Both the position numbers and the translations under genes were made by a program. A model generated the notes under the pieces. It did no database searches. It had not been told where the DNA came from and worked only from the letters and a program-made list of their open reading frames with translations. Below are positions 11,115 through 24,588 of a stretch of 64,000 bases of DNA, in pieces. This DNA is from Devosia sp. ZB163 (GTDB taxonomy: Bacteria; Pseudomonadota; Alphaproteobacteria; Rhizobiales; Devosiaceae). Within the stretch, counting starts at the first letter, position 1. Every line of letters begins with the position of its first letter. The stretch is from positions 539,778-603,777 of the forward strand of contig NZ_JAQRMY010000001.1 in the NCBI RefSeq assembly GCF_028613635.1, in the 5' to 3' direction.

Positions 11115-11293
11115 GGCGATGGCCTGTTCTCGACCCAATCAGTGACGAAAACGAACCGAGTCCGCTGGGCGGGAGCTCGGCGGTCCTCAATCTGACCAGA
11201 TCCTTGTGCTGGTCGACGCGTCGGATGCGTGCCGAGCATGCACAATGACTAAAACGGCGGTCGCGATGTTTGGTTGCGGCGGCAGACAGCGCC

Positions 11294-11575
11294 TCAGGCC
11301 ACGTCCTCGCCCGGCGTTACCTGCGGTGGATTGGGCAGCAGCGGCGTCAGTCCTGAGTCCCGCAACCAATTGGAGGGAACCAGCAGGGCCTTGTCAGCGG
11401 CGGCCTTGTCGATGAACAGGGTTACGCTGGCGAACACGTCCATCCCCGTATCGACCAGGTGATAGCCGCGAAAGCCCTCGACTTTGCTGATGATGGGGAG
11501 GAATTCTCCGGAGACCCGGCGCAAGACTTCCTGTGGCTTGATGACTCCGGCGTAGCGCCGGATGATGACATACAT
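11294..11575 (-). CDS. Small alpha+beta protein, ABM-like
   Basis: A 93-residue protein. The pattern MYVIIRRYAGV, then EFLPIISKVEGFRGYHLVDTG, then VFASVTLFIDKAAADKAL resembles the small dimeric alpha+beta barrels of the antibiotic biosynthesis monooxygenase (ABM) type. That is an inference from strand and helix pattern only. The ATG at 11575 is chosen because GGAGG sits 8 nt upstream and the longer frame is not protein-like. A good -10 (TAGAAT on the minus strand, 11606-11611) and an imperfect FNR-type box at 11634-11648 lie upstream, 32 bp apart. Confidence 0.7.
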   Translation of the reverse strand: MYVIIRRYAGVIKPQEVLRRVSGEFLPIISKVEGFRGYHLVDTGMDVFASVTLFIDKAAADKALLVPSNWLRDSGLTPLLPNPPQVTPGEDVA

Positions 11576-11633
11576 ATCGCACCTCCGCGACATATTGAGC
11601 AGCGGGATTCTACGCGTTCCGCCCTGCCACGCC

Positions 11634-11648
11634 TTGCGATCGGTCAGG
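11634..11648 (-). promoter_or_regulatory. Imperfect FNR/FixK-type box upstream of the ABM-like gene
   Basis: Plus-strand TTGCGATCGGTCAGG. One half-site (GTCA, reading TGAC on the minus strand) is intact and the other is degenerate (TGCG). Its centre is 32 bp from a TAGAAT -10 element of the minus-strand gene. This matches class II FNR activation, where the box is centred at about -41.5. It is the weakest member of the set. Confidence 0.45.
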
Positions 11649-11691
11649 TTTAGAGCGGTTTGCCGAGCAGTTGCGTGATCGATCGGTTCCT

Positions 11692-12519
11692 TTAGTGCGC
11701 AATCAGCAGCGGGACTGGTGATCGCTGCAGCAGCTTTCGGGTCGTTCCCCCCAGAAGCCATTCAGCAAGACGGGAATGACCGTATCCACCCATGATGGCA
11801 AGGTCCGCATCGAGAGCCCTGAATTCCTCGATCAGGCCGTCGGCGACGCTGCCCTGGGTGGGGATGGTCCGCAGCCGTCCCTCAATTCCGTGAGCCTTGA
11901 GATAGCCGAGGGCCTTCTCCCCGATCAGGGCGTCGATTTCGAGGTGCCCCCCCCTGCCGACTACGAGGACGGTGACGATTCGCGTGTTGTGGAGATAAGG
12001 TCGTGCTTCGGAAAGCGCCCGGGCGACTTCGCAGCTGCCATTCCAGGCAATTACGGCGTGCTTGAACCCACCTTCATAACTACGCCGGTCGTTTACGAGG
12101 AGAAGGTGTCGTCCGCCTCGGAAAAGGACAGTCTCCACGACATCCTGCCTTTCGCTGTCGCCGCTGGCCGACGGGCGCAAGGTCAGGAACACGTCTGCGG
12201 CACGGGCTTCGCGCGCGCAGACCCAGCCGATATCGGCTTCGAAAACGTCAAACCGGCGCAATTCGGAACGTTGGCCCAGTTCCGCAAGCCGCGTCTTCAA
12301 TTCGGCTGCGGCGATATCTCCCGACTTCCGCGCTGCCGCGACCAGAGGCGACCAGGCATCGGTGTGGAGGTCGACGCGTGGAATGGGAGAGGGGAGTACG
12401 TTGAGATAGAGCCCGACGACCTGCGCGTCGAACAGTTGCGCGAGCTCGCGCGCGGCGTGGAGCCGAAGGCCGTCGGGCGTCGTGTTGCCGTCAAAGCGAA
12501 CAAGGATGACCTTGATCAT
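11692..12519 (-). CDS. Universal stress protein, tandem-domain UspA type
   Basis: A 275-residue protein with two Usp-like domains. The first starts MIKVILVRFDGNTTP and the second starts near KHAVIAWNGSCEVARAL. The second ends with the ATP-binding pattern G-x2-G-x9-G-[ST], seen as GGYGHSRLAEWLLGGTT. Tandem Usp proteins are induced in starvation, anoxia and NO stress in many bacteria. The ATG at 12519 starts the first beta-strand of the fold; an upstream ATG at 12564 would add 15 low-complexity residues and run into the promoter. A CCTGAC-N4-GTCAGG box and a TTATTT -10 lie upstream. Confidence 0.87.
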   Translation of the reverse strand: MIKVILVRFDGNTTPDGLRLHAARELAQLFDAQVVGLYLNVLPSPIPRVDLHTDAWSPLVAAARKSGDIAAAELKTRLAELGQRSELRRFDVFEADIGWVCAREARAADVFLTLRPSASGDSERQDVVETVLFRGGRHLLLVNDRRSYEGGFKHAVIAWNGSCEVARALSEARPYLHNTRIVTVLVVGRGGHLEIDALIGEKALGYLKAHGIEGRLRTIPTQGSVADGLIEEFRALDADLAIMGGYGHSRLAEWLLGGTTRKLLQRSPVPLLIAH

Positions 12520-12598
12520 ACTGCTTTCATGCGACTGATCGGAGGGTGTGGCTGTCGATGCCACGCTGGATCAAATAAGGCCGGCGTCCGCCCCTCGC

Positions 12599-12614
12599 CC
12601 TGACCGTTGTCAGG
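12599..12614 (-). promoter_or_regulatory. FNR/FixK-type box upstream of the universal stress gene
   Basis: A perfect palindrome CCTGAC-CGTT-GTCAGG. Its centre at 12606.5 is 31 bp from a minus-strand TTATTT (12573-12578), the spacing expected for a class II FNR-dependent promoter of the usp gene. It could also serve the small plus-strand gene at 12692. Confidence 0.6.
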
Positions 12615-12691
12615 TCGTTGCAGGACCGCACTCGGCAAGATGCAGGTTCATCGAGGACGGCCAGTTCCAAGTCGGCCCTCTGCGTCTAACC

Positions 12692-13069
12692 ATGCGTGTC
12701 GGGATCTGCTCCATGGCCAGGAAAGTAATGCTTGAGGCGATCAATACCGGCCACCGGCTGTTGGTGACCCCGGAAGAGATACGTCTGTGGGGGGAGGCAC
12801 GTTCCGGGTTGCCTGCCATCGAAGATCGGCCGCCAAACATACCGGGCCCGCCGATCCTTCGCATCGTTTTCGACCAGCAGCTGCTGAATACGGGCGAGAG
12901 CCAATACGGGGATCGGCCTGGCGGCCTGGAACTTGTTTCGTGGGACGAGTGGGTGGCCGAACTCGAGGTGCGCAATCTCGCTCTCAAGGTCGCGATCGAG
13001 GTTCCCGGTATGCTCGATGACCGCTACGAGTTCGTGGAACTTGACAGGCCCAGGAGCGAAATTTCCTAG
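12692..13069 (+). CDS. Hypothetical protein
   Basis: About 125 residues, unrecognised. The protein-like part runs from MARKVMLEAINTGHRLLV through LRIVFDQQLLN to WVAELEVRNLALKV, with a mixed alpha/beta look and no membrane segment. The start is uncertain: ATG at 12692, or ATG at 12713, which has a weak GGGA eight bases upstream. The opposite strand also has an open frame, but its composition is not protein-like. It is the only plus-strand gene between the two-component pair and cbpA. Confidence 0.5.
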   Translation: MRVGICSMARKVMLEAINTGHRLLVTPEEIRLWGEARSGLPAIEDRPPNIPGPPILRIVFDQQLLNTGESQYGDRPGGLELVSWDEWVAELEVRNLALKVAIEVPGMLDDRYEFVELDRPRSEIS

Positions 13070-13079
13070 TCCAAGGTCG

Positions 13080-13211
13080 TCACCGATCGATCGTTTGGAT
13101 CGCAAGATAGGCGACAAGATCGGCAAGCTCTGTCGGATCCTTGATGCCGGGAAATGCCATCTTGTTTCCCAGTGCCGTTTCGCAATCCTGGTCCCGGAGA
13201 CGGATCATCAT
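13080..13211 (-). pseudogene. C-terminal remnant of a cytochrome c, coupled to the DUF1269 gene
   Basis: A 43-codon frame reading MMIRLRDQDCETALGNKM then AFPGIKDPTELADLVAYL. The GNKMAFPGIKDP-x-ELADLVAYL pattern is the C-terminal part of class I cytochrome c, including the axial Met segment. The haem-binding C-x-x-C-H half is absent. The frame starts inside the DUF1269 stop codon (ATGA overlap) with GGGAGG six bases upstream, so it may still be translated. It is most simply a deletion remnant. Confidence 0.7.
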
Positions 13212-13750
13212 GCTGACCTCCCGGTGGACGTATCCGAGGGCGCCGCAGCTGCGAGGGCATCGCGAAGAGCCTGCTCCTTCTCGGGATCGAGCGATGCCTT
13301 GATTACCTCGCCACCCGATCCCTTGATGGCCTCGAGCACCTTTTCGAACGAGACCTTGCGGATCAGGAGGAACAGTGCCGCATGACCGGGGGCAAGCTTT
13401 TGGCTCAACTCCTTCATGAAGTTGTCATCGATGCCGAGATCGGTGAGCGCGCCACCGATAGCGCCGGACGCTGCCCCGAGCGCAACGCCCGAGACCGCGC
13501 CGATAGCAAGTCCCGCGACCGGCATCAGGAAGAGAGCGCCGAGTAGCAGACCCCACATGCTGCCCGACAACGCGCCGGCGGCAGTCGGGTTGAGCAGCTG
13601 GTTCAGACGCACATGGCCGTTGCCGGTGTTGACCGCGATCGCCGCATCGTCGAGCTCGATCAGGTATTCCTTCTGGAGCTGCAAGAGCTTCCGGCGCATC
13701 TCCTCGGCCTGTTCTTCGCTGGGGTACACGATGACAGCAAGGTCGGGCAT
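13208..13750 (-). CDS. DUF1269 family membrane protein
   Basis: A 180-residue protein starting MPDLAVIVYPSEEQAEEMRR, with a central Gly/Ala-rich double membrane segment (GSMWGLLLGALFLMPVAGLAIG and AVSGVALGAASGAIGGAL). A soluble tail with DNFMKELSQKLAPGHAALFLL and FEKVLEAIKGSGGEVIKASL follows, as in DUF1269 proteins. AGGAGACCCCAG precedes the ATG. Its stop overlaps the start of the cytochrome c remnant. Function is unknown; members are often stress-induced. A TTGAC-N4-GTCA box lies 84 bp upstream. Confidence 0.82.
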   Translation of the reverse strand: MPDLAVIVYPSEEQAEEMRRKLLQLQKEYLIELDDAAIAVNTGNGHVRLNQLLNPTAAGALSGSMWGLLLGALFLMPVAGLAIGAVSGVALGAASGAIGGALTDLGIDDNFMKELSQKLAPGHAALFLLIRKVSFEKVLEAIKGSGGEVIKASLDPEKEQALRDALAAAAPSDTSTGRSA

Positions 13751-13827
13751 CTGGGGTCTCCTTGGTACGCGCGCAGATTGGGGAAGCGATGGTGCGAGAA
13801 AGCTCAACCGGAGCCGCCGGGACGGCC

Positions 13828-13841
13828 TTGACGTCCGTCAG
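13828..13841 (-). promoter_or_regulatory. FNR/FixK-type box upstream of the DUF1269 gene
   Basis: TTGAC-GTCC-GTCAG, centred at 13834.5, which is 84 bp from the ATG of the DUF1269 gene. No strong -10 is visible at the expected place, so the assignment rests on the motif and its consistent distance from the start. Confidence 0.5.
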
Positions 13842-13916
13842 TCAGGCTTCCGAAATGCAACGGCGGCAGAAGCTTGTGCCGCTGCCGCCGTGACACGCGC
13901 CGGGGAGGAGGCGGCG

Positions 13917-14216
13917 CTATTTCATGCCTTCGAGGTTCCGGCAAAACGCCACGACGACAGGAGGGTGGTCTGCCGCGGGTTCTACCAGTTGCACCAGACA
14001 GGCCTCCTTGACCTTGGCCTGCTGGTCAGCGGACAGCGAACGCATGAATGCCTGGTTGTCTTCGGCGGTCGTTCCCGCATTCGAAATGTCGACGCCGAGT
14101 TCTTTCATGCCTTGGGTGTCGGCGTTGGAGCCGGTCGTCTCTTGCGAAAAGCTCTGGGTTGGCGCGAGGGCGAACAGGATCACGCCGGCGAGTGCGATAC
14201 GGGTGCTAGTCTTCAT
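13917..14216 (-). CDS. Small secreted protein, unknown family
   Basis: A 99-residue protein with a signal peptide (MKTSTRIALAGVILFALAPTQSFSQ), predicted periplasmic. The mature part has two cysteines (KEACLVQLV and VAFCRNLEG), the segment MKELGVDISNAGTTAEDNQAF and SLSADQQAKVKEAC. It looks like a small disulfide-stabilised helical protein. It lies 58 nt downstream of the PRC-barrel gene on the same strand, so it is probably cotranscribed. Confidence 0.7.
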   Translation of the reverse strand: MKTSTRIALAGVILFALAPTQSFSQETTGSNADTQGMKELGVDISNAGTTAEDNQAFMRSLSADQQAKVKEACLVQLVEPAADHPPVVVAFCRNLEGMK

Positions 14217-14274
14217 GACAGTTCCTTGGTTGGGACCAGGCGCGACGGCCGCACGACGCAGGTCCGGAGCGGTC

Positions 14275-14718
14275 CTATTTGTCCTGGCCGTATTTGAACT
14301 CTTGGGTCTGCTGCAGCTCTTCTTTGGAACCGCCGCTGGTCAGCACGATCCCACGACCCCCATCGCTGATCTCGAGGCTCTCGTAAGGGACCGCGACGAG
14401 GTAGCCGCCAAGCCCGAGAAATGCGCCGACCTGCAGGATTGCGTAAACAAGCCGGTCCTGATCGAAGATCAGGTCGTCGAGCGTGCCGACTTCCTCCTTG
14501 GCGGAGTTGACGACTTTCGTTCCAAGGAGCTTGGAGGCGCGGAAGCCTTCCGCAACCTTGACGACGTCGACGACAGTTACTGTCTGGGCGATGGCCGGGC
14601 GAACAGTCACCGTGACGCTCAGAGCAGCACAGGCGGCCGCGGCCAGCAACGCTGCGGAGAGCCAATGCCGCTGATGGCGGTTACGGGATTCGGCGGCGTG
14701 AGCGATGGCTACTTTCAT
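14275..14718 (-). CDS. PRC-barrel domain protein, exported
   Basis: A 147-residue protein. The N-terminus has a basic region and a signal or anchor segment (WLSAALLAAAACAALSVTVTV, then RPAIAQ). The PRC-barrel follows at about residues 60-125: FRASKLLGTKVVNSAKEEVG, TLDDLIFDQDRLVYAILQVG, LGGYLVAVPYESLEI. PRC-barrels are small beta domains found in RNA processing and photosynthetic or envelope proteins. Exported ones next to BON and stress genes are common in this group, with unknown function. A strong FNR-type box and a GATACT -10 lie upstream. Confidence 0.8.
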   Translation of the reverse strand: MKVAIAHAAESRNRHQRHWLSAALLAAAACAALSVTVTVRPAIAQTVTVVDVVKVAEGFRASKLLGTKVVNSAKEEVGTLDDLIFDQDRLVYAILQVGAFLGLGGYLVAVPYESLEISDGGRGIVLTSGGSKEELQQTQEFKYGQDK

Positions 14719-14802
14719 TGTTGATCCTCGCTGTGATTGAACTGGTCGCCGATGGTTGGATCGGGGACCTTGCGAGTATCCCGGGATGCGCGCCCTCTGT
14801 CC

Positions 14803-14817
14803 TTGACCGCCGTCAGG
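14803..14817 (-). promoter_or_regulatory. FNR/FixK-type box upstream of the PRC-barrel gene
   Basis: TTGAC-CGCC-GTCAGG. It overlaps the stop codon of the DsbA-family gene. The centre at 14809.5 is 33 bp from a minus-strand GATACT (14774-14779). This is the spacing expected for class II activation of the PRC-barrel operon. Confidence 0.6.
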
Positions 14818-15355
14818 TTTGGTGTGCGGGCGCGTTCATTGCGGCATTGATCGCAGTGATCAGCTCGGGCGCGAGGTACGCACCATTGTAACGCTCGCCG
14901 TTGATGAAGAAGGTCGGGGTGCCGTTCACACCGCTGCGGATGCCCCCCATGAAATCGTCGTTGATCTTGCTGCGATAGCGGCCGCGGTTGATGGCATCGC
15001 GCAGATCGAGCTGGGAGAGACCGAAGGTGCTCGCGAGCGCGAACAAGGTGGTTGGGCTGAGCATCCGCTGGTTCCGGAAGATCGCCTCATGCATCTCCCA
15101 GAACACTCCATTCTCGCCAGCGAACTCCGCTGTTTCCGCGGCGACGAGCGCGTACGGGTGAATCTCGGTCAACGGGAAGTGCCGGTACACCAGCGCCAGC
15201 CTTTCGCCGAACTGGGCTTGCACCCGCCTGACGTTTGGTTGCGCCGCGGCACAGTGCGGGCATTGATAGTCACCATACTCGACCAACGTCACGATCGCAT
15301 TGCGACCGCCCGAGATGTGGTCATGCGCGTTTACGGGCACTCTTAGCGTCGACAT
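14813..15355 (-). CDS. DsbA-family thioredoxin-fold protein
   Basis: A 180-residue DsbA-type protein with the redox motif CPHC in EYGDYQCPHCAAAQPN near residue 30, a helical insert (ALVAAETAEFAGENGVFWEMH) and the cis-Pro loop NGTPTFFINGERY. No signal peptide is visible, so it may be cytoplasmic like the thioredoxin domains associated with NhaA-type proteins. The ATG at 15355 is the last plausible start before the fold. It overlaps the end of the peroxiredoxin gene by 35 nt, implying coexpression and perhaps electron supply to it. Confidence 0.88.
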   Translation of the reverse strand: MSTLRVPVNAHDHISGGRNAIVTLVEYGDYQCPHCAAAQPNVRRVQAQFGERLALVYRHFPLTEIHPYALVAAETAEFAGENGVFWEMHEAIFRNQRMLSPTTLFALASTFGLSQLDLRDAINRGRYRSKINDDFMGGIRSGVNGTPTFFINGERYNGAYLAPELITAINAAMNAPAHQT

Positions 15356-15833
15356 CGAGGCTCTCCACAGCTGGCATCTTATCGAGGGCGTCGAGAATTC
15401 CATCGGCGCCGGGATTGACGGCAAGCGGGGACTGGTAGCTCCATACAATCATACCCTGCTCGTCGATCAGAAAGAGCGCGCGCGCCGCCTCTCCCACGTC
15501 CTCCATGTAGCAGCCATATGCCGTCGCAACGGCGCCCTTGGGGTGAAAGTCGGCAAGTATGGGAAAGTGAAGGTTGCGCGCCTTTGCGAATTCCTGATGG
15601 CACCACGCGCCGTCGACTGAGATGCCGAGAAGCTCGGCGCCGCGCCGGCGGAACTCAGGCAGGATCTGGTTGTAGAGCGCCAGCTGGTCGCCGCAGACCG
15701 GACTCCAGTCGGCGGGATAGAAGGTGAGAATGACCCGACGGCCGGCAAGCTCCGACAGTGCGAGTTTCTGGTCAGGTGTGACCGGAAGCGAAAATGCGGG
15801 GGCCTTGGTTCCAGGTTGCAGGTAGCGAGCCAT
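15321..15833 (-). CDS. Peroxiredoxin (AhpC/TSA family)
   Basis: A 170-residue thiol peroxidase. The peroxidatic cysteine lies in FYPADWSPVCGDQLALYNQ near residue 46, in the usual P-x3-[ST]-x2-C context with Ser in place of Thr. Further matches are ELLGISVDGAWCHQEFAKA and FPILADFHPKGAVATAYG, then RALFLIDEQGMIVWSY. It reduces hydrogen peroxide or organic peroxides using a thioredoxin-like donor, and the overlapping DsbA-type gene is a natural candidate. GGAGCACCGTC precedes the ATG. Confidence 0.88.
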   Translation of the reverse strand: MARYLQPGTKAPAFSLPVTPDQKLALSELAGRRVILTFYPADWSPVCGDQLALYNQILPEFRRRGAELLGISVDGAWCHQEFAKARNLHFPILADFHPKGAVATAYGCYMEDVGEAARALFLIDEQGMIVWSYQSPLAVNPGADGILDALDKMPAVESLDVDAKSARKRA

Positions 15834-15889
15834 GACGGTGCTCCGCTTTGGAGGGGGGCGTACGCGGCCAGGGAAACCGCGGACGCATT

Positions 15890-16078
15890 TCAGGATGCTC
15901 GGACGGGGGCAACTCGTTGCTTGGCTTTGCCAAGGCGCATCCCGAGTTGGAATGCCAATGCGACGATCCCAAAAGCGATGGCAAGCAGGCCGCGCAGGCT
16001 CACGATCCACCAGTTTCTGACGAGGTTGGCGTTTATGGCGCCGGCTCGCCCCGTGGACGCCGTTGCGTTGCCGCTCAT
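15890..16078 (-). pseudogene. Truncated HdeD-like (DUF308) membrane protein
   Basis: A 62-codon frame whose NWWIVSLRGLLAIAFGIVAL segment matches the first membrane helix of HdeD/DUF308 proteins, which normally have six helices and about 180-200 residues. After this helix the sequence turns basic (LGKAKQRVAPVRAS) and stops. I see no HdeD-like continuation in other frames before the peroxiredoxin gene. It is probably a deletion remnant, although a single-helix peptide could still be made. Its start overlaps the BON gene stop by ATGA. Confidence 0.65.
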
Positions 16079-16950
16079 TGCGAGACTCCCTGCCTCGTAG
16101 AAGTAATGACAATGCGATTCTCGACGACCTGGACGCCAGGCGTCTGCCAGGCGACGTGCTCGGCTTCCTGCCGCTCGGCCCAGCTTCTGACCCTGCCACT
16201 CAGGACAATCCGATCGTCGTCGGCCTCGATTTCGATACTCTTCGCATCGGTCTCGGCAATGCGACGGAATGCGTCTTCGATCCTCCGCCTGAGGGCGGTC
16301 TCCGCCGAGGCTGCGCCAACTTCCAAGTTATTGTTGACCGCAATCACGTCACGCACCTGAGAGGCGAGCTCACTGGCGCGAAGCCGCTGCGACTTGCTCG
16401 CGACCTGACCCTCGAGGGTCACGGCACCATTCTGAACCGAGATCCTGATGCCGTCCGCCACATCGCCGAACTCAAGAGCAAGTACTGCAGCGAGGTCGCT
16501 GGCGATCTCTGGGTCGGGGCGCCTGTCCATACCGGGTAGCCGGACTTCGATCTCGTTCACAATGACGCCAACACCTTCGACGCCCTTGACGATGCTTTCG
16601 GCGAGCCACTTCTGGTCGAGTCGCTCAACGACGCCGCCGATCGTCACAACGCCCTCTCTGGCGGCAATGCTGATCGTGGCTGACCTGAGCTCGGGGCGCT
16701 CGTCGAGCGCGGCCTGAATCTGGCTGGTGATCGCTTCGTCCGATGGCATTGTCATCGAGCTCCGGTGATGATCGTGGTGACCGCTGGACGGTAGCGGCGG
16801 CGAGGCGTCCGGACCTTGACCAGTGTCAGTTTCACTGCCGGCAGCCGGACCGGCGGCGACGACTGGCCCCCAGGCTGGTGGGTCGCTGGCGGGGAACGAG
16901 TCCTCGCTGGCGCGATCGACCGGGTCCGAAGCCTTGTCGCCGCCGGCCAT
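16075..16950 (-). CDS. Three-BON-domain protein with SFPASDPP-type N-terminus
   Basis: A 291-residue protein. Residues 1-65 are an acidic, Pro/Ser-rich segment with ASEDSFPASDPPAWG, a motif otherwise seen in tiny stand-alone proteins of many bacteria. Three BON domains follow: about 70-135 (ITSQIQAALDERPEL, then VVTIGGVVERLDQKW), 145-210 (AVTLEGQVASKSQRLRA) and 215-285 (IVLSGRVRSWAERQEAE). BON domains bind phospholipid or envelope surfaces. No signal peptide is visible from either possible start (16950 or 16755). It follows the other BON gene after 5 nt. Confidence 0.83.
   Translation of the reverse strand: MAGGDKASDPVDRASEDSFPASDPPAWGPVVAAGPAAGSETDTGQGPDASPPLPSSGHHDHHRSSMTMPSDEAITSQIQAALDERPELRSATISIAAREGVVTIGGVVERLDQKWLAESIVKGVEGVGVIVNEIEVRLPGMDRRPDPEIASDLAAVLALEFGDVADGIRISVQNGAVTLEGQVASKSQRLRASELASQVRDVIAVNNNLEVGAASAETALRRRIEDAFRRIAETDAKSIEIEADDDRIVLSGRVRSWAERQEAEHVAWQTPGVQVVENRIVITSTRQGVSQ
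16816..16829 (-). promoter_or_regulatory. FNR/FixK-type box inside the BON gene's N-terminal region
   Basis: TTGAC-CAGT-GTCAG, centred at 16822.5, within the coding segment for TDTGQG. If translation really begins at the internal ATG at 16755, the box would be 67 bp upstream of it. I see no convincing -10, so this may be a chance match or an internal promoter. Confidence 0.3.
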
Positions 16951-16955
16951 TGTTG

Positions 16956-17612
16956 TCAGCTCCAATCGATGGTGATCAGGTTCCGGACGCTTTTTACGCC
17001 CGGGGCGCGCCACGCTGCGCGCTCCGCCGCCTCCTTCTCCGCCCAGGACTTCACGGTGCCTCGCAGCGTGACTTCCGAGCCTCCCACCTCGACGGTGATC
17101 CGTTGCGCATCCAGCTCCGCGGTTCGCTTGAGTGCCTCCTGGATCTTGGCCTTGACTTCGAACGGCTCCACCTTCGGCTTGATCGCGATCAGGTTGGAGA
17201 CTCCCTTCACGCCAATCACGCGGCGGATCGCCTCTTCAGCGCGACGGCGCTGATACTCCCACTCGACGTCTCCCTCGAGCGTCAGCCAACCGTCCTTCAC
17301 CACGATCTTGATCAGTTCGTGGGAGAAGGGGAGCTCCGCCTTCAGCTTGGCGACGGCGTCCCGGGCAATTTCGGGATCGGGGCGCTCACTTGAGGAGGGA
17401 AGCCGAACTTCGAGGTCATTGGCTACGGCGCGCACGCCGGAAACGCGCTTGGCCACCCGCTCCGCCTCCCACTTCTGGGTGTAGCTGCGTACGAAGCCCG
17501 TCAGGGTCACGACCCCATCCTTCACCGCGATCGCGATGTCGGTCGCATCGATGTCCGGTTCCCACTTGAGCTCGGCTTCCACGTCCCGACGAATGTCACT
17601 GTCTGTTCTCAT
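16956..17612 (-). CDS. Three-BON-domain protein
   Basis: A 218-residue soluble protein made of three consecutive BON domains: about residues 3-70 ([20 protein letters not shown], then [20 protein letters not shown]), 78-145 ([20 protein letters not shown]) and 150-217 ([20 protein letters not shown]). No signal peptide is visible. It heads the operon of the second BON protein, HdeD remnant, peroxiredoxin and DsbA-type gene. A TTGAC-N4-GTCA box lies 86 bp upstream. BON repeats suggest a membrane-stabilising or shock-protective role, but none is proven for this architecture. Confidence 0.87.
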
Positions 17613-17691
17613 GTCTCAAACTCCCAATGGGGCTCAGAGCCGATCCGGTCGATCGGTCCGCATCACCCTAAGGAGGGCCGCGCCGGTCGCC

Positions 17692-17704
17692 TTGACCGCT
17701 GTCA
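17692..17704 (-). promoter_or_regulatory. FNR/FixK-type box upstream of the BON operon
   Basis: TTGAC-CGCT-GTCA, centred at 17698.5. A minus-strand TAGGGT at about 17664-17669 is a possible -10 roughly 32 bp away. It would drive the BON-BON-HdeD'-peroxiredoxin-DsbA operon. Confidence 0.55.
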
Positions 17705-17730
17705 CTTTTGAGGCGCGAATTTGAGGCGCG

Positions 17731-17760
17731 AAAAAGCCCCACGGTGAGGCGCCGTGGGGC
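17731..17760 (-). terminator. Rho-independent terminator of the hsp20 operon
   Basis: On the minus strand, GCCCCACGG pairs perfectly with CCGTGGGGC around a 7-nt loop and is followed by TTTTT. It lies just after the stop of the last hsp20 gene and insulates that operon from the BON operon. Confidence 0.88.
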
Positions 17761-17785
17761 TCAGAAGGCAAGCGAGGGAGGGAGG

Positions 17786-18310
17786 TCAGCTTGCCTGAAT
17801 CTTGATCCTTTTTTGACCGGACCGCGACTCGACCGACTTGGGGACCACGATAGTCAGGGCCCCGTTCTTGAAGCGCGCGGCTGCCTGATCGGGCACTGAA
17901 CCCTCGGGCAGAGGGATGGTACGCTCGAGAACACCGACGCTTCGCTCGATCATGACCGCGGTGCCGCTGCTTTCCTGCCGCGCTTGCTGGCGTTCGGCGC
18001 GGATCGACACCGAGCCCGTCCCAACAGTGACCTCGATATCGTCCTCGGAGAAGCCGGGCAGCTCGGCAACGATCTCGACCTCGTTCCCCTTGTCGCGAAC
18101 ATCGACCTTGAAATCGGGCTGTTCTACACCGGAAAATGCCCTCAACACGGCTTGGGGTTGGGAGAATGGCATGAGGTTCCAGAAGCTCCCGAAGGCGCGG
18201 TCCATGTCGGCCTGAAGAGCAAGGATGGGATCGCTATCGCTATCGCGATCTGTCGGCGCCGGTACATTTGCGCGACGCTGACGGAAAGGAACGACATCGA
18301 ATATGCCCAT
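17786..18310 (-). CDS. Small heat shock protein, Hsp20 family (third of three)
   Basis: A 174-residue sHsp. The N-terminal arm MGIFDVVPFRQRR and ADMDRAFGSFWNLM is followed by the alpha-crystallin domain at about 70-165: DFKVDVRDKGNEVEIVAELP, GFSEDDIEVTVGTGSVSIRA, then ERTIPLPEGSVPDQAAARF and the A-x-x-x-n-G-x-L motif as KNGALTIVVPK. It forms oligomers that hold unfolding proteins for DnaK. The ATG at 18310 is preceded by GAGGAGAATGAA. It is last in a three-gene operon ending at a strong terminator. Confidence 0.93.
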   Translation of the reverse strand: MGIFDVVPFRQRRANVPAPTDRDSDSDPILALQADMDRAFGSFWNLMPFSQPQAVLRAFSGVEQPDFKVDVRDKGNEVEIVAELPGFSEDDIEVTVGTGSVSIRAERQQARQESSGTAVMIERSVGVLERTIPLPEGSVPDQAAARFKNGALTIVVPKSVESRSGQKRIKIQAS

Positions 18311-18320
18311 TTCATTCTCC

Positions 18321-18722
18321 TCAGTTGAGCTTGACCGAAATCTTCTTGGACGGCTGCTGCGCTGCTTTGGGCAAGGTGAGGCGAAGCACACCGTTCTTGA
18401 GCACTGCATCGATCCCGTCCCGGTCGATCTGATCGGAGATGACGAACTTCCGCTCGTACGAACCGTCGCGATACTCCGCATAAAGTGGCCTGAGGCCCTC
18501 AGGCGCCGTGGACATCGACTGCGCGGCGATGGTGAGCACGCGTTCGTCGAGAGTGACGTCCAGTGTCTCCGGGTCAGCCCCTGGGACGTCGAGAATCATC
18601 ACCAGGGCATCGGACCGTTCGATGATGTCCGTTGCCGGAATGAAGGTTGGACCGACGCGCGTCGGCTCGGCGCCGTTGCCGTTGGTGGCAGCTGGACGAC
18701 CGTCTTGCTGAAGCTCTGCCAT
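18321..18722 (-). CDS. Small heat shock protein, Hsp20 family (second of three)
   Basis: A 133-residue sHsp with a short, low-complexity N-terminal arm and an alpha-crystallin domain (ALVMILDVPGADPETLDVTL, then YERKFVISDQIDRDGIDAVL and KNGVLRLTLPKAAQQPSKKI). I chose the ATG at 18722 because GGAGG sits seven bases upstream; an earlier ATG at 18737 would overlap the preceding gene's stop. The three paralogues differ strongly in length and N-terminal arm, as in mixed sHsp oligomers. Confidence 0.92.
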   Translation of the reverse strand: MAELQQDGRPAATNGNGAEPTRVGPTFIPATDIIERSDALVMILDVPGADPETLDVTLDERVLTIAAQSMSTAPEGLRPLYAEYRDGSYERKFVISDQIDRDGIDAVLKNGVLRLTLPKAAQQPSKKISVKLN

Positions 18723-18733
18723 GGGTTCCTCCA

Positions 18734-19183
18734 TCACGACGGCTGAACTTTGATGCGCTTGGGACGCTCTGACTCCGGACGCGGTAGCTCAAGGGTCAGC
18801 ACGCCATGTTTGAAGCTCGCCTTCACACCGTCCGGATCGACATGGAACGGTAGAGTAAAGCTGCGCGCGAATGCTCCGGCGGTACGCTCAGCCCGGTGGA
18901 CGACATCCCCTTCGGAGAGCGCTTCGGGTTCGCGGGTGCCGCGAAGAGTCACGGTGTCCTGGTGAACCGAAACATCGAGGGCGTCGGGCTCGACCCCCGG
19001 CACCTCTGCGCACAGAACGGCGTGATCGGCGCTGGCCCATACGTTGATCAAGGGATAGTCGGCCTGGGTGGGGGCGAAGCGCAGGGAACCAATAGCTCGG
19101 TTGAGCTCTGACTGCGCACGCCACATCTGCTGGAATGGATCCATCTGACGGGGGGAGGCGATGGGGACTGGACCTTGCATCAT
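18734..19183 (-). CDS. Small heat shock protein, Hsp20 family (first of three)
   Basis: A 149-residue sHsp with FQQMWRAQSELNRAIG in the N-terminal arm, the alpha-crystallin core (HAVLCAEVPGVEPDALDVSV, then FARSFTLPFHVDPDGVKASF) and KHGVLTLELPRPESERPKRI at the end. It heads the operon and is divergent from cbpA; the shared 140-bp region holds a TGAT-N4-ATCA box. Start ambiguity is one codon (MM). Confidence 0.93.
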   Translation of the reverse strand: MMQGPVPIASPRQMDPFQQMWRAQSELNRAIGSLRFAPTQADYPLINVWASADHAVLCAEVPGVEPDALDVSVHQDTVTLRGTREPEALSEGDVVHRAERTAGAFARSFTLPFHVDPDGVKASFKHGVLTLELPRPESERPKRIKVQPS

Positions 19184-19256
19184 TTTTCGCTGCTCCGGGC
19201 TGAGGTCGTGCTGACGACGACCATCCCAGCTTGCCCCGGCCGCATCGGCGGGTCGC

Positions 19257-19268
19257 TGATGCCCATCA
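19257..19268. promoter_or_regulatory. FNR-type box between the divergent hsp20 operon and cbpA
   Basis: TGAT-GCCC-ATCA, the core of the canonical FNR site. It is 80 bp from the hsp20 start and 62 bp from the cbpA start. A GATAAC element at 19289-19294 lies 29 bp from its centre and could be the -10 for cbpA. I found no convincing sigma-32-type promoter here. Confidence 0.5.
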
Positions 19269-19323
19269 TTTCCCCGGGCCGCAGCAGGGATAACCTTGCC
19301 GCTTTCGATCGCAGGAGCCGGCC

Positions 19324-20226
19324 GTGGCTGCCAATCCGTACCAGGTTCTCGGAGTGAAGAAGGACGCCTCCCAGAAGGAGATCCAACGGGTCTACCGGCA
19401 ACTGGCGAAGAAATCGCATCCCGATCTGCATCCAGGGGACGCTGAGGCCGAGCAGAAGTTCAAGGAACTCACCGCAGCCTACGAGCTGATCGGCGACGCC
19501 GATAAGCGCAAGCGTTTCGATGCCGGCGAGATCGACGCCTCGGGACAGGAGACGCCGAAGCGAAGCTACTATCGCGACTTTGCGGGATCAGAGGCAGGCG
19601 CGGGCGCCTATCGATCAGCCGCCGGGTTCTCCGATTTCGGGGACGCGGAGGACATCTTCTCCAGTATGTTCGGTGGCCGCTCCTTCCGCTCGCGTGGACC
19701 GGACATTCGCTACCGGCTGACGATCGACTTCCTCGATGCCGTCAATGGCGGCACGAAACAGGTGACGCTGGCGGACGGCTCGAGCATCGACGTCAGTATT
19801 CCGCCGGGGACGCGTGACGGCCAGGTTCTGCGACTGCGCGGGAAGGGCCAGCCTGGCACCGGGGGAGGTCCCCCGGGCGACGCTCTCGTCGAAATCGTCG
19901 TGCGGCCGCACCCCTTTTTCACGCGCGATGCTGACGACATTCGGCTCGAGCTCCCTATATCCCTCACCGAGGCGGTGCTCGGCGGCAAGGTTAAGGCGCC
20001 GACGCCGACCGGTACCGTTATGGTCACTGTGCCCAAATGGTCGAGTAGCGGCAGGGTGCTTCGGATACGCGGTCGCGGCGTACCTCGCCGCGACGGATCT
20101 CGCGGAGACGCCTATGCTCGTCTCGCCATTGTCCTGCCTCAGAAGCCGGATGCGGAGCTCGAAAAGTTTGCCACCGGCTGGTCCGCCGGCAAGGCGCATC
20201 AGCCCCGCCAGCATATGGGAGTGTGA
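19324..20226 (+). CDS. cbpA: DnaJ-class co-chaperone CbpA
   Basis: A 300-residue class II J-protein. The J-domain is at about residues 4-68 with the HPD motif (AKKSHPDLHPGDAEAE). A short Gly-containing linker follows, with no zinc-finger cysteines. The C-terminal substrate-binding domains hold GPDIRYRLTIDFLDAVNGGT, SIPPGTRDGQVLRLRGKGQP and PISLTEAVLGGKVKAPTPTG. It stimulates DnaK ATPase and delivers substrates. The start is GTG with GGAG about eight bases upstream. Its stop overlaps the start of cbpM (TGATG), the classic CbpA-CbpM pairing. Confidence 0.93.
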   Translation: MAANPYQVLGVKKDASQKEIQRVYRQLAKKSHPDLHPGDAEAEQKFKELTAAYELIGDADKRKRFDAGEIDASGQETPKRSYYRDFAGSEAGAGAYRSAAGFSDFGDAEDIFSSMFGGRSFRSRGPDIRYRLTIDFLDAVNGGTKQVTLADGSSIDVSIPPGTRDGQVLRLRGKGQPGTGGGPPGDALVEIVVRPHPFFTRDADDIRLELPISLTEAVLGGKVKAPTPTGTVMVTVPKWSSSGRVLRIRGRGVPRRDGSRGDAYARLAIVLPQKPDAELEKFATGWSAGKAHQPRQHMGV

Positions 20227-20489
20227 TGCTCACGACTGCGGAACTTTGCGACGAACTGCACATCGGACGCGATCTCCTGGACCGCTGGATCGCCAGCGGC
20301 TGGCTTAACCCGGCCACCGAAGGCAGCGTCGCCAGTTACGCCGACATCGACATCGCTCGCGCCCGTCTCATCCTCGAGCTAAGCACTGATTTCGAGGTGA
20401 ACGAGCAGGGGATCGGCATCATCATCGATCTCATCGACCAGATACACGGTTTACGTTTCGCGCTGCGGCATGTTCTCGACATCCGCTAG
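20226..20489 (+). CDS. cbpM: CbpA modulator CbpM (MerR-like helix-turn-helix fold)
   Basis: An 87-residue protein with TTAELCDELHIGRDLLDRWIA at the N-terminus and ADIDIARARLILELSTDFEV, then EQGIGIIIDLIDQIHGLRFAL, matching the CbpM/MerR_2 fold. In E. coli CbpM binds the J-domain of CbpA and restrains it. Translation is coupled to cbpA through TGATG. A GTG one codon earlier is the alternative start. Confidence 0.9.
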   Translation: MLTTAELCDELHIGRDLLDRWIASGWLNPATEGSVASYADIDIARARLILELSTDFEVNEQGIGIIIDLIDQIHGLRFALRHVLDIR

Positions 20490-20505
20490 CCCGTACAGTC
20501 CGGAA

Positions 20506-21075
20506 TCAGTCGGCGCCAATTCCGATCCCCTCGTTATCGACCACTCCAACCTTTGCCGGCCGCAGCAATCGATCGTGGATCATATAGCCGGGCAGGATTA
20601 CTTCCATCACCTGGCCGGTATCGAGGCCCGGCTCAGCGCGCTGGTAGACAGCCTCGTGGTAGCGGGGGTCGAACCGCTCGCCCAGGGGTTCGATCTTGCG
20701 GATGCCGTGCTTGGCCAGGGCTGCAAGCAGGTTGCGCTCGGTAGCGACTACCCCCGAGAGCAAACTTTCGACGCCGCCTTGTGGCGAACTCTCCACCGCC
20801 CGGCGCAGGTTGTCGACCGACTCCAGCAGGTCCCCCGCCAGCTGTGCGGCGGCGAAACGCACGGCTTCATCGCGTTCCCGCGCTGCAAGCTTTCGCACAT
20901 TGTCCTGATCGGCAAGAGCGCTCCGAAGAGCCTCGCGTGTTTCGACGAGAGCCCTCTCGTTCGCGGCCAGACGCTCGTGAACGTCCGGCTCTCCTATTGG
21001 ATCGCCGTCAACGCTCTGGTCGTCCCGCGGAGGCGGCTCAGCCGCGTTCTGGTCGCCCGGATGTGGTCGTGTCAT
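20506..21075 (-). CDS. grpE: Nucleotide exchange factor GrpE
   Basis: A 189-residue GrpE. Acidic and Pro-rich residues 1-32 precede a long coiled coil (RLAANERALVETREALRSAL), and the beta domain has GERFDPRYHEAVYQ and LPGYMIHDRLLRPAKVGV. It releases ADP from DnaK. The sequence looks less standard than a housekeeping GrpE, fitting a second, stress-specific copy, although the housekeeping copy is outside the window and I cannot compare them. It lies 26 nt downstream of dnaK. Confidence 0.93.
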   Translation of the reverse strand: MTRPHPGDQNAAEPPPRDDQSVDGDPIGEPDVHERLAANERALVETREALRSALADQDNVRKLAARERDEAVRFAAAQLAGDLLESVDNLRRAVESSPQGGVESLLSGVVATERNLLAALAKHGIRKIEPLGERFDPRYHEAVYQRAEPGLDTGQVMEVILPGYMIHDRLLRPAKVGVVDNEGIGIGAD

Positions 21076-21101
21076 GCTCGTCTCGACTTCATCGCAGTGC
21101 C

Positions 21102-23009
21102 CTAGGGCGATCCATGGGTTTGGTTGTCGTCGACATCTTCAAACTCGGCATCGACGACATCGTCGTCGCCCCCGGGCGTGCCGCCAGCGCCATCGCTGCT
21201 GTCGGCGGAGCTTGTCTGTGATGCAGCCTGAAGCTGTTGCGTCGCTCCTGCGAGCGCGGTTGTCTTGGCATCGATGTCCGCCTTGTTGTCCGTAGTCATG
21301 GCGGTCTGGAGCTCGGTGATCGCGGTCTCGACCGATTCCTTCTGGTTCGGCGCCTTGTCTCCCGCCTCGGTGAGGGCGCGTTGTCCTGCGGCGATCTGAG
21401 CGTCTGCCTGGTTCCTGGATTCAATCAGCGCCCGCCGAGCCTTGTCGGCCTCCGCATTCTGCTCGGCCTCCTTGATCATGCGGTCGATGTCCTGCTGGGT
21501 TAGCCCGCCAGAACTCTCGATCTTGATCTGCTGCTCCTTGCCGCTCTGCTTGTCCTTGGCGGAAACGTTGACGATCCCATTGGCATCGATGTCGAAGGTG
21601 ACTTCGATCTGCGGAACGCCACGCGGCGCTGGCGGAATGCCGACGAGATCGAACTGGCCAAGCAGCTTGTTGTCGGCGGCGAGTTCGCGCTCGCCTTGGA
21701 AGACCCGAATGGTCACAGCATTCTGGTTGTCCTCGGCCGTCGAGAACGTCTGGCTCTTCTTTGTCGGGACGGTCGTGTTGCGCTCGATCAGCTTGGTGAA
21801 CACGCCGCCGAGCGTCTCGATGCCGAGCGACAGTGGCGTCACGTCGAGCAGCAGGACATTGGAAATGTCGCCTTGCAGGACGCCGGCCTGGATGGCGGCG
21901 CCGATGGCGACGACTTCGTCGGGATTGACGCCCTGGTGCGGTTCTTTCTTGAACAGGCCTTTGACCGTCTCCTGCACCTTGGGCATGCGCGTCTGGCCGC
22001 CGACAAGCACGACTTCCTCGAGCTCATCGGCCTTCAACTTGGCGTCCTTGAGGGCAGCCTCGCACGGTGGCACTGTGCGCTGGATGAGGTCGCCAACCAG
22101 TTCCTCGAGCTTGGCCCGCCGAATCTTGATCTCGAGATGTCGCGGGCCGGACGCGTCGGCGGTGATAAACGGCAGGCTGGCCGTCGTCTCGAGGGTCGAG
22201 GATAGCTCGATCTTCGCTTTCTCGGCTGCGTCCTTGAGCCGCTGCAGCGCAAGCCGGTCCTGCCTGAGGTCGATACCCTGGTCTTTCTTGAATTCCTCGG
22301 CGAGGTAGTCGACGAGGCGCTTGTCGAAATCCTCGCCGCCGAGGAACGTGTCACCGTTGGTCGCCCGCACCTCGAACACTCCGTCCCCGATATCGAGAAT
22401 GGAGATGTCGAACGTGCCGCCGCCAAGGTCATAAACCGCGACTTCGCCATGTCCTTGCTTCTCGAGGCCATAAGCGAGAGCCGCCGCCGTCGGCTCATTG
22501 ATGATGCGCAGCACCTCCAGTCCTGCGATCTGTCCGGCATCCTTGGTGGCCTGACGCTGCGAGTCGTTGAAATAGGCAGGAACCGTGATCACAGCCTGGG
22601 TGACTTTGTCGCCGAGGTAGCGCTCCGCAGTTTCCTTCATCTTGGTGAGGATGAAGGAGCTGATCTGGCTTGGGCTGTACTTCTTGCCCGCGCATTCGAC
22701 CCAAGCGTCCCCATTGGGACCGGGTACAATCTTGTAGGGCACCAGCCCCTTATCCTTATCTACGATAGGATCGTCGTAGCGCCGGCCGATAAGACGCTTG
22801 ATGGCAAAGACCGTGTTCTCCGGGTTGGTTACGGCCTGGCGCTTGGCCGGCCATCCCACCAGGATTTGCCCATCCTTGGAGAAGGCTACGTATGAGGGGG
22901 TAGTCCGCTGGCCTTCCTCGTTCTCAATGACTTTGGACTGCCGGCCTTCCATAACCGCCACGCAGCTATTGGTGGTCCCGAGATCGATGCCGATCACTCG
23001 CTTGGCCAT
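21102..23009 (-). CDS. dnaK: Hsp70 chaperone DnaK
   Basis: A full-length 635-residue Hsp70. The ATPase domain has [36 protein letters not shown] and [20 protein letters not shown]. The interdomain linker is [14 protein letters not shown] and the substrate-binding domain includes ITVRVF-type strands and [20 protein letters not shown]. The lid is Gln/Ala-rich. It ends in [21 protein letters not shown], the usual EEVD-like acidic tail plus a short extension. Its partner grpE follows, but the J-protein is a CbpA type on the other strand rather than dnaJ, so this is probably an accessory DnaK. AAGGAGACGAGCA precedes the ATG, and a TTGAC-N4-GTCA box lies about 98 bp upstream. Confidence 0.95.
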
Positions 23010-23100
23010 TGCTCGTCTCCTTCAACCGGCGCGATGGCGCCGCGTAGCGCGGGCCTGGTCGGTGCCTGTCGCATCCTCGCGCGCGTGCGGGACGCGCGCG

Positions 23101-23114
23101 TTGACGGACGTCAG
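23101..23114 (-). promoter_or_regulatory. FNR/FixK-type box upstream of dnaK
   Basis: TTGAC-GGAC-GTCAG, centred at 23107.5 and overlapping the stop codon of the upstream gene. It is 98 bp from the dnaK ATG. A possible -10, AGGATG, lies about 32 bp downstream of the centre. No better promoter is visible between the two genes. Confidence 0.5.
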
Positions 23115-24560: not shown

Positions 24561-24588
24561 GCCCGTTAAGGGAGTTCCCGTAACGGGC
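24561..24588. promoter_or_regulatory. 28-bp near-perfect palindrome between the Crp/Fnr gene and a divergent gene
   Basis: Arms GCCCGTTAAGGGA and TCCCGTAACGGGC separated by GT, with one mismatch per arm pair. There is no T-run, so it is more likely an operator than a terminator. The rest of the 350-bp divergent region (24467-24816) holds no recognisable gene. Confidence 0.45.

What the first reader, a model, noticed from the sequence alone, without database searches (positions are those of the whole stretch)
11634..23114. A shared FNR/FixK-type box in front of nearly every stress-island operon
TTGA(C/T)-N4-(G/A)TCA palindromes occur upstream of the usp, DUF1269, PRC-barrel, BON, hsp20/cbpA and dnaK transcripts, with an imperfect one before the ABM-like gene. 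Box centres lie 62-98 bp from the start codons. For ABM, usp, PRC and BON a -10-like hexamer lies 31-33 bp from the centre, the class II FNR geometry. The Crp/Fnr protein encoded at 23789-24466 has the E-T-V-S-R recognition helix that reads TTGA half-sites in FNR and FixK. This implies one regulator controls a chaperone-plus-redox regulon within 12 kb.
Basis: partly seen in the sequence, partly recalled or inferred. Interest (0 to 1): 0.8.

Follow-up and report, generated by a model that had tools for sequence, protein, structure and literature searches.

The report
FixK-type switch controlling a stress island
A soil bacterium related to Devosia carries a block of chaperone and stress-protection genes, many of whose promoters share one switch sequence; the same switch sits at the same kinds of genes in distant relatives beside a distinct kind of FixK-like regulator, so one signal probably turns the block on together.

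Summary
Six TGAC-N4-GTCA palindromes lie in the 13.2 kb island and none in 49.5 kb of the rest of the window.

A matrix trained on other genomes puts these six boxes first among all sites of the window. Boxes recur before dnaK, cbpA, hsp20, BON or PRC in Mycoplana, Methylopila, Rhizobium and Bradyrhizobium. All eight window promoters have at least two of three key -10 bases at class II spacing.

Corrections: (1) the regulator is FixK-like, without FNR's cysteines, in a 22-row clade apart from the genome's own FNR and FixK paralogues; (2) island boxes favour TTGAC/GTCAA, while TTGAT/ATCAA is commoner elsewhere; (3) the window's best FixJ-like site lies before the regulator, and FixL/FixJ-like genes lie at the island's far end. 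Which of at least three ETVSR regulators reads the boxes, and the signal, are unproven. FixK control of chaperones is known; this is a new variant.

The parts
23789..24466 (-). FixK-like Crp/Fnr activator (225 aa from ATG 24466; ORF to 24529); recognition helix ISAETVSR; no N-terminal cysteine cluster
   Evidence: Pfam cNMP_binding, HTH_Crp_2, Crp; NCBIfam FixK 124.6 bits, below the 300 cut-off; FixK2 4i2o E 4.8e-30; clade of 22 rows, support 100/99
24567..24582 (.). FixJ-like palindrome TACGGGAACTCCCTTA, -116 to -101 from the regulator's start
   Evidence: 12 of 16 bases of the S. meliloti FixJ site quoted in PMC4999443; best match in the 64 kb window, next 11
9492..11138 (-). FixL-like histidine kinase (PAS, HisKA, HATPase_c); no heme PAS shown
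8705..9253 (-). FixJ-like response regulator (receiver + LuxR HTH); reading frame continues upstream of 9253 into the missing receiver N-terminus
   Evidence: Pfam Response_reg and GerE; frame; FixJ-like genes lie near the regulator in L031, L032 and others
23101..23114 (-). Box of dnaK-grpE (CTGACGTCCGTCAA), centre -98; -10-like GAGGAT at 23073-23078
   Evidence: matrix rank 6 in window
19256..19269 (.). Shared weaker box of divergent hsp20 (-) and cbpA (+), core TGATGCCCATCA; -10-like CAAGCT 19228-19233 (-) and TAACCT 19291-19296 (+)
   Evidence: a perfect TTGAC-N4-GTCAA lies between hsp20 and cbpA in L031 and L044
17692..17705 (-). Box of BON1 (GTGACAGCGGTCAA), centre -86; -10-like TAGGGT 17665-17670
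   Evidence: matrix rank 4
16816..16829 (-). Box before BON2 (CTGACACTGGTCAA), centre about -68; lies inside an open reading frame that starts right after BON1, so promoter role uncertain
   Evidence: matrix rank 1; not among the eight promoters
14803..14816 (-). Box of PRC-barrel gene (CTGACGGCGGTCAA), centre -91; -10-like GATACT 14775-14780
   Evidence: matrix rank 2
13828..13841 (-). Box of DUF1269 gene (CTGACGGACGTCAA), centre -84; weak -10-like TTGAGC/TGAGCT 13800-13806
   Evidence: matrix rank 3
12600..12613 (-). Box of usp (CTGACAACGGTCAG), centre -87; -10-like TTATTT 12573-12578
   Evidence: matrix rank 5
11632..11647 (-). Imperfect box of the ABM-like gene (CTGACCGATCGCAAGG); -10-like TAGAAT 11607-11612
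   Evidence: not reached by the strict pattern, nor in the 24 best rows of the matrix
21102..23009 (-). dnaK, second copy (74% identical to the copy at C1:519383-521272, which has no box in 300 bp upstream)
20506..21075 (-). grpE, downstream of dnaK
   Evidence: best model below its cut-off
19324..20489 (+). cbpA-like DnaJ protein (19324-20226) and MerR-type partner (20223-20489)
   Evidence: the names cbpA and cbpM are recalled, NCBIfam scores are below cut-offs
17786..19183 (-). Three hsp20 genes (18734-19183, 18321-18737, 17786-18310)
   Evidence: Pfam HSP20
16075..17612 (-). Two triple-BON proteins: BON1 16956-17612 and BON2 about 16075-16755
   Evidence: Pfam BON, three stretches each; BON2 start codon checked
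14813..15833 (-). AhpC/TSA-like (start 15833) and DsbA-like genes; no box of their own
   Evidence: Pfam AhpC-TSA and DSBA
14275..14718 (-). PRC-barrel protein
13208..13750 (-). DUF1269 protein
11692..12519 (-). Universal stress protein
11294..11575 (-).

Best explanation
The palindromes are class II activator sites of a FixK-like Crp/Fnr regulator. A FixL/FixJ-like two-component system coded at the island's far end probably switches on the regulator gene through a FixJ-type site. The regulator dimer then binds (C/T)TGAC-N4-GTCA(A/G)-N-G centred near -41.5 and recruits ordinary sigma-70 polymerase at a -10 that begins 29 or 30 bases after the box centre. This turns on dnaK-grpE, cbpA-cbpM, hsp20, BON, PRC, DUF1269, usp and the ABM-like gene as one stress and redox programme, apart from the housekeeping dnaK copy. 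Shown by sequence: boxes, spacing, conservation, distinct regulator clade, FixJ-like site. Inferred: binding by this regulator rather than by its paralogues, activation, the cascade, and a low-oxygen or redox signal.
For: Held-out matrix: the six best of all window positions are island boxes on the gene strand; without the three nearest loci the same six boxes fill the first seven rows. Conservation: 31 of 78 upstream regions in 13 loci hold TGAY-N4-RTCA (my count of the rows); 17 of 28 BON relatives in 25 order-mates do. TTGA-N6-TCAA is in 17 of 78 regions, and in at most 1 at any other spacer from 0 to 11. In 47 foreign sites the -10 score is highest for a hexamer that begins at +30 (3.13; neighbours 2.60 and 2.32; elsewhere at most 2.27), with T at +35 in 57% and A at +31 in 40%. 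The eight window promoters score 19 of 24 at offsets 29/30; the next separate offset pair scores 10. Regulator clade 100/99; 12 of its 17 loci outside the window have three or more island genes, against 1 of the 34 other loci. Best FixJ-like site of the window lies before the regulator; 11 of 51 regulator upstream regions reach a shuffle fraction of 0.03 or less. Housekeeping dnaK has no box. A box outside the island precedes an ABM-domain protein (L147, 19.3 bits).
Against: No binding or expression data. At least two other ETVSR regulators in the genome could read the same sites. 47 of 78 upstream regions lack the box; some of these genes are inside operons, but dnaK and cbpA of the Bradyrhizobium loci L037 and L081 have none. 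11 of 28 BON relatives have none. No box before the regulator itself; NCBIfam FixK cut-off not met. The hsp20/cbpA and ABM boxes are weak. In the pooled sites T at +30 is only 32%, no commoner than A. 40 of 51 regulator upstream regions show no clear FixJ-like site. The kinase has no demonstrated oxygen-sensing domain. Loci were fetched by their regulator, so its presence beside the islands is partly by selection.
Confidence: 0.7

Rival explanations
1. The boxes are real but are read mainly by the genome's FNR (C2:72 kb) or FixK-like paralogue (C2:69 kb); the neighbouring regulator does something else or overlaps only partly.
For: Both paralogues have E-T-V-S-R helices and lie near a classic target, hemN. 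PMC2908626 and PMC4999443 (passages read) treat FNR and FixK sites as very similar or indistinguishable. A box outside the island, before a gene that I recall as hemA, is also TTGAC...GTCAA. Sites with C at base 5 are also reported for Fnr/Dnr in Dinoroseobacter (PMC5398030, passages).
Against: Six island promoters have C in 10 of 12 half-sites, the 14 perfect TTGAY-N4-RTCAA sites elsewhere in the genome in 9 of 28 (Fisher 0.005); the two sets were picked by different patterns, which weakens this. In 11 island genomes TTGAC-N4-GTCAA falls in the held island loci 19 of 106 times, TTGAT-N4-ATCAA 3 of 167. 12 of the 13 loci with three or more island genes carry a regulator of the same clade; L061 does not.
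Confidence: 0.25
2. The island is driven by the general stress sigma factor (EcfG) or RpoH, and the palindromes are incidental.
For: Chaperone, BON and PRC genes are usual EcfG or RpoH targets (recalled).
Against: Simple EcfG-like and RpoH-like patterns (written from recall) gave no hit in the 150 bp before the 13 positions scanned; cbpA was not scanned, and four positions (ABM, DsbA, AhpC, BON2) were a few bases off the start codon. The -10 position tracks the box centre across genera.
Confidence: 0.05
3. Chance or compositional artefact: TGAC...GTCA is common in GC-rich coding DNA.
For: 93 such sites lie elsewhere in the genome; two of the seven strict matches are in coding sequence; the reversed-pattern control is not zero for TTGAC-N4-GTCAA (19 against 106 in 11 genomes).
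Against: Shuffles, reversed pattern, spacer scan, held-out matrix and cross-genus conservation.
Confidence: 0.02

Closest known systems
FixLJ-FixK2 regulon of Bradyrhizobium diazoefficiens
   Same: FixK-like activator; FixK2 boxes before groEL5, hspC2 (-86), a universal stress protein and nitroreductase-dnaJ (part of Table 2 of PMC9104804, passages read); FixL/FixJ upstream (its abstract)
   Different: The FixK2 box is TTGA/C-N6-T/GCAA with many TTGAT halves in that table; here the regulator lies inside its own island and the boxes are mainly TGAC/GTCA
Low-oxygen-activated (lxa) locus of Burkholderia cenocepacia
   Same: Cluster with universal stress, heat-shock and BON-domain proteins that rise together; a CRP/FixK homologue is proposed as regulator (PMC6127331, passages read)
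   Different: The proposed regulator gene (BCAM0049) is outside the locus (BCAM0275-BCAM0323); six USPs there; no box comparison made here
FnrN-dependent small heat-shock gene of Rhizobium leguminosarum (RLV_1399)
   Same: Anaerobox TTGA-N6-TCAA centred at -87.5 from the start codon, microaerobic induction (PMC11784457, passages read)
   Different: Single gene, dependent on FnrN, another branch of the superfamily
DosR regulon of mycobacteria
   Same: Works like it: a hypoxia switch over universal stress proteins (as described in PMC6127331, passages); alpha-crystallin is recalled
   Different: DosR/DevR is a NarL-type response regulator (abstract of PMC3029386), unrelated to Crp/Fnr

Membership tests
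FixK subfamily of Crp/Fnr | Cyclic-nucleotide-binding-like domain plus Crp HTH | tested here: met
FixK subfamily of Crp/Fnr | Lacks one or more of FNR's four cluster cysteines (criterion in PMC2908626) | tested here: met
   no cysteine before C57 in the protein (sequence); own FNR paralogue has a cysteine-rich N-terminus
FixK subfamily of Crp/Fnr | E-T-V-S-R recognition helix | tested here: met
   ISAETVSR
FixK subfamily of Crp/Fnr | Closest characterised structure is FixK2 | tested here: met
   4i2o, E 4.8e-30; next is an FNR at 8.1e-11
FixK subfamily of Crp/Fnr | NCBIfam FixK equivalog cut-off | tested here: not met
   124.6 bits against 300; the model's name points to Caulobacter
FixK subfamily of Crp/Fnr | Groups with canonical FixK in a tree | tested here: inconclusive
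   22-row clade excludes the genome's own FixK-like paralogue, but no characterised FixK was in the tree and deep forks are weak
FixK subfamily of Crp/Fnr | Transcribed under FixJ | tested here: inconclusive
   FixJ-like palindrome in front of the gene; no expression data
FixK subfamily of Crp/Fnr | Controls fixNOQP and other respiration genes | not tested
   no call made
FNR (oxygen-sensing) | Four cluster cysteines | tested here: not met
Class II Crp/Fnr-activated promoter | Box centred near -41.5 with a -10 in phase | tested here: met
   (sequence only; transcription starts not mapped)
Class II Crp/Fnr-activated promoter | Activation by the bound regulator | not testable with these tools
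   needs binding and expression assays
lxa-type low-oxygen locus | Induced by low oxygen | not testable with these tools
   no expression data for this organism

The most novel reading that the evidence does not exclude
A separate clade of FixK-like activators goes with stress islands across Alphaproteobacteria and reads its own dialect of the anaerobox, TTGAC-N4-GTCAA in place of TTGAT-N4-ATCAA, which insulates the island from the cell's FNR and FixK. The choice tracks the residue two places before the helix glutamate (Ser/Ala against Thr). In Bradyrhizobium jicamae the same system covers at least 100 kb with dozens of boxes.
Probability: 0.4. Interest if true: 0.68.

Novelty: new variant of a known kind. 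Interest (0 to 1): 0.52.

Why it matters
FixK and FNR sites are held to be very similar or indistinguishable (PMC2908626, PMC4999443, passages), which hinders regulon assignment in Alphaproteobacteria. PMC4999443 says that it found no group-specific changes in the contacting residues. If the island clade really prefers TTGAC/GTCAA, sites could be assigned to regulators from sequence, and one residue becomes testable as a specificity switch. It also gives a self-contained chaperone and redox programme, with its own regulator and perhaps its own sensor, in scattered lineages, much as DosR and lxa do elsewhere.

Tried and rejected
EcfG-like and RpoH-like promoters: no hit with simple patterns. 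Autoregulation: no box before the window regulator; 13 of 50 regulator genes in other loci have one within 300 bp, so it is not general. Exclusive dialect: rejected as absolute, because a hemA-like gene outside the island has TTGAC-N4-GTCAA, L034, L050 and L054 each hold one TTGAT-N4-ATCAA, and L036 and L037 are half T. Helix against base 5 (73 of 86 C halves for Ser/Ala, 9 of 22 for Thr) was noticed after looking, and rows are not independent (L050/L054, L037/L081, L051/L059 look like near pairs); kept as a hypothesis. L044 was added to it only after the tree gave its helix. An oxygen-sensing heme PAS in the kinase: not found, not excluded. A first look at the housekeeping dnaK used the wrong end of the locus and was redone. 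In one search the positions used for ABM, DsbA, AhpC and BON2 were a few bases off the start codon. A paper search for StoRD, a name that I half recalled, found nothing. Structure prediction was not run: the fold is not in doubt.


Full report
What the window holds. The genome is 4.59 Mb in 10 contigs. A same-genus genome, G099, has a contig of the same length and match as the record 'Devosia sp. isolate RYN_484' (L031), so I read the host as a member of the Devosiaceae. The island, about 11.3 to 24.5 kb, codes for Usp, DUF1269, PRC-barrel, DsbA-like, AhpC-like, two triple-BON proteins, three Hsp20, a CbpA-like protein with a MerR-type partner, GrpE, DnaK and a Crp/Fnr protein. The DnaK is a second copy, 74% identical to one at C1:519383-521272. 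A FixL-like kinase and a FixJ-like response regulator lie at 8705-11138.

The observation. The strict pattern TTGA[CT]-N4-[AG]TCA occurs 7 times, all in the island, but only DUF1269, PRC, BON1 and dnaK have it clearly in front of a gene. A fifth, at 16822.5, lies before BON2 inside an open frame. Two are inside BON coding sequence. usp has CTGAC-N4-GTCAG; hsp20/cbpA has CTGATGCCCATCAT; ABM has a one-sided box. The better description is TGAC-N4-GTCA: 6 in the island, 0 in the other 49.5 kb examined, the commonest of 256 half-sites at spacer 4, though CGCG at spacer 11 is commoner (8, and 10 outside). There are 99 in the whole genome against 26 for the reversed pattern. TGACNNNNGTCAANG gives 19 in the genome, five of them in the island.

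Conservation. One scan of named genomes gave 51 loci with a relative of the regulator. Thirteen of them hold at least three island genes other than usp. In their 78 upstream regions TGAC-N4-GTCA is found in 22 and TTGA-N6-TCAA in 17, first and second of 3328 combinations (next 9). The TTGA palindrome appears at spacer 6 in 17 regions and in at most 1 at any other spacer from 0 to 11. By my count of its rows, 31 of 78 regions have TGAY-N4-RTCA and 47 do not. dnaK has the box in the Devosia MAG, Mycoplana, Methylopila and Rhizobium vallis but not in the two Bradyrhizobium loci; cbpA has it in the Devosia MAG, Methylopila and R. vallis. Starting from BON1 instead of the regulator, 297 genomes of the order were searched; 26 including the own one have a relative at E 1e-30, and 17 of 28 fetched relatives (of 32 listed outside the own genome) have a box within 250 bp upstream. 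In 15 of the 28 the projected start was not an ATG, so distances there are rough. All 25 genomes also hold some Crp/Fnr relative, from 49% identity down.

Held-out test. A matrix from 47 non-redundant sites of the other loci, with no window sequence, was run on both strands of the window. The six best hits are 16822.5, 14809.5, 13834.5, 17698.5, 12606.5 and 23107.5, all on the gene strand, and each scores higher than its own reverse. The seventh is the dnaK box read backwards; the eighth is 9488.5, between the kinase and the response regulator, on the wrong strand; hsp20/cbpA follows at 15.5 and 14.8. Without L031, L032 and L033, the loci nearest to the window's (37 sites left), the same six boxes fill the first seven rows; five of six still prefer the gene strand, dnaK does not (18.6 backwards, 17.9 forwards).

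Promoter geometry. The pooled profile shows a downstream flank NGC (G 79%, C 64%). The trailing NG is already in the consensus TTGANCNNGATCAANG quoted in PMC4999443. A -10 score is highest for a hexamer that begins at +30 from the centre (3.13; neighbours 2.60 and 2.32; elsewhere at most 2.27); T at +35 is 57%, A at +31 is 40%, T at +30 is 32% against 34% A. With the centre at -41.5 these are -7, -11 and -12. In the window the same three bases at offsets 29/30 give 19 of 24 over eight promoters, and the next separate pair of offsets gives 10.

The regulator. It lacks an N-terminal cysteine cluster. FixK2 is the nearest solved protein, but the NCBIfam FixK cut-off is missed. Close orthologues are rare in the family: of 136 genomes searched (134 with some match), the own protein apart, only G099 (66%) and G108 (55%) stand out, and the other listed matches are at or below 36% (the list was cut). 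In a tree of 56 rows it lies in a 22-row clade with support 100/99. The clade holds the window and 17 loci, 12 of which have three or more island genes (among them Mycoplana, Azospirillum, Methylopila, Rhizobium vallis, two Bradyrhizobium, BTAi1); of the 34 other loci one has (L061) (Fisher 4e-7). The blast used window proteins as queries and some loci are short, so this count favours near relatives. The clade excludes the genome's own FNR and FixK paralogues. Deep forks are weak and no characterised FixK was included.

Dialect. In 11 island genomes TTGAC-N4-GTCAA occurs 106 times (reversed control 19), 19 of them in the held island loci; TTGAT-N4-ATCAA occurs 167 times (control 0), 3 in them (Fisher 2.5e-6, and 8.6e-6 without L054, which shares sites with L050). 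In the own genome six island promoters have C in 10 of 12 halves, and the 14 perfect TTGAY-N4-RTCAA sites elsewhere in 9 of 28; the two sets were picked by different patterns. Loci whose regulator has Ser or Ala two places before the helix glutamate have C in 73 of 86 halves, Thr types in 9 of 22; by clade it is 67 of 80 against 15 of 28. This was seen after the fact and the rows are related. Against it: a hemA-like gene (name recalled; Pfam Aminotran_1_2) has a TTGAC/GTCAA box outside the island, and C at base 5 is reported for Fnr/Dnr sites of Dinoroseobacter (PMC5398030, passages). In its favour: the own hemN, hemerythrin and a CydD-like transporter (name recalled) have TTGAT/ATCAA.

Larger versions. 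In Bradyrhizobium jicamae 120 kb around the island hold 66 TGAY-N4-RTCA (6 to 15 at each of seven other spacers) against 14 in 120 kb of control stretches of the same genome, and 29 against 1 TGAC-N4-GTCA. Two control contigs were picked from those named; the third control is another part of the same contig. Genes after these boxes include ClpB, Hsp20, BON, PRC, AhpC, Usp, an FMN oxidoreductase, dehydrogenases, a Na/H exchanger and a baeRF protein: 20 proteins, picked by eye from the 66 rows, were scanned, 19 from B. jicamae and one from BTAi1, and one had no family. BTAi1 has 20 TGAY-N4-RTCA in 60 kb, 2 to 9 at other spacers.

Upstream layer. The best match in the window to the S. meliloti FixJ site (12 of 16, next 11) is at 24567-24582, 101 to 116 bases before the regulator's start. 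Of 51 regulator upstream regions (window and 50 loci) 11 reach a shuffle fraction of 0.03 or less, nine of these ten loci with FixL/FixJ-like neighbours (three, L042, L043 and L045, are near copies); 40 do not. The 100 shuffles kept base composition only.

Mechanism and rivals. The boxes as FixK-type class II sites I hold at about 0.9, from the sequence tests. That the island regulator is the main reader I hold at about 0.7; FNR or FixK cross-reading is the chief rival. The signal is unknown; low oxygen is the best guess by kinship, but no oxygen-sensing domain was shown here in either protein.

Literature. Passages only were read of PMC2908626, PMC11784457, PMC9104804, PMC6515984, PMC6127331, PMC4999443 and PMC5398030; other papers were seen as search listings. 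FixK2-dependent chaperones and Usp in B. diazoefficiens, an FnrN-dependent small heat-shock gene with its box at -87.5, predicted Hsp20 membership of the FixK regulon (PMC2908626, Table 1) and the lxa locus are in print. I saw no paper on a TTGAC/GTCAA dialect tied to an island FixK clade in the listings of ten searches, which cover open-licence PMC papers only; most listed papers were not opened.

On rereading, these points were mended: the clade is shared by 12 of 13 islands, not all; the pooled -10 is described by its numbers; the held-out test was repeated without the nearest loci; one more paper search was made.

Noticed in passing
B. jicamae contig NZ_LLXZ01000102.1, 30-150 kb (L154-L159): 66 FixK-type palindromes in 120 kb against 14 in 120 kb of control stretches; downstream genes include ClpB, Hsp20, BON, PRC, AhpC, Usp and a baeRF protein.
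   Followed up: partly
   Followed up: partly
8705-9330: The response regulator's reading frame runs upstream of the first ATG/GTG/TTG into its receiver N-terminus, so its start codon is probably unusual.
   Followed up: no
16755-16951: An open frame (MAGGDKASDPVDRASEDSFPASDPPAW...) starts just after BON1 and runs in frame into BON2; the best-scoring box lies inside it.
   Followed up: no
9483-9494: TGAC-N4-ATCA palindrome at the end of the kinase gene, upstream of the response regulator, eighth row of the held-out matrix but on the wrong strand.
   Followed up: no
L035, L036, L039, L041-L043, L045-L049 and others: FixL-like, FixJ-like and Crp-like genes recur together, in some Roseomonas-type loci next to usp.
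   Followed up: partly
own genome C2:68000-82000 (L151): FNR-like and FixK-like paralogues with hemN and a hemerythrin gene, each of these two genes with a perfect TTGAT-N4-ATCAA box.
   Followed up: partly
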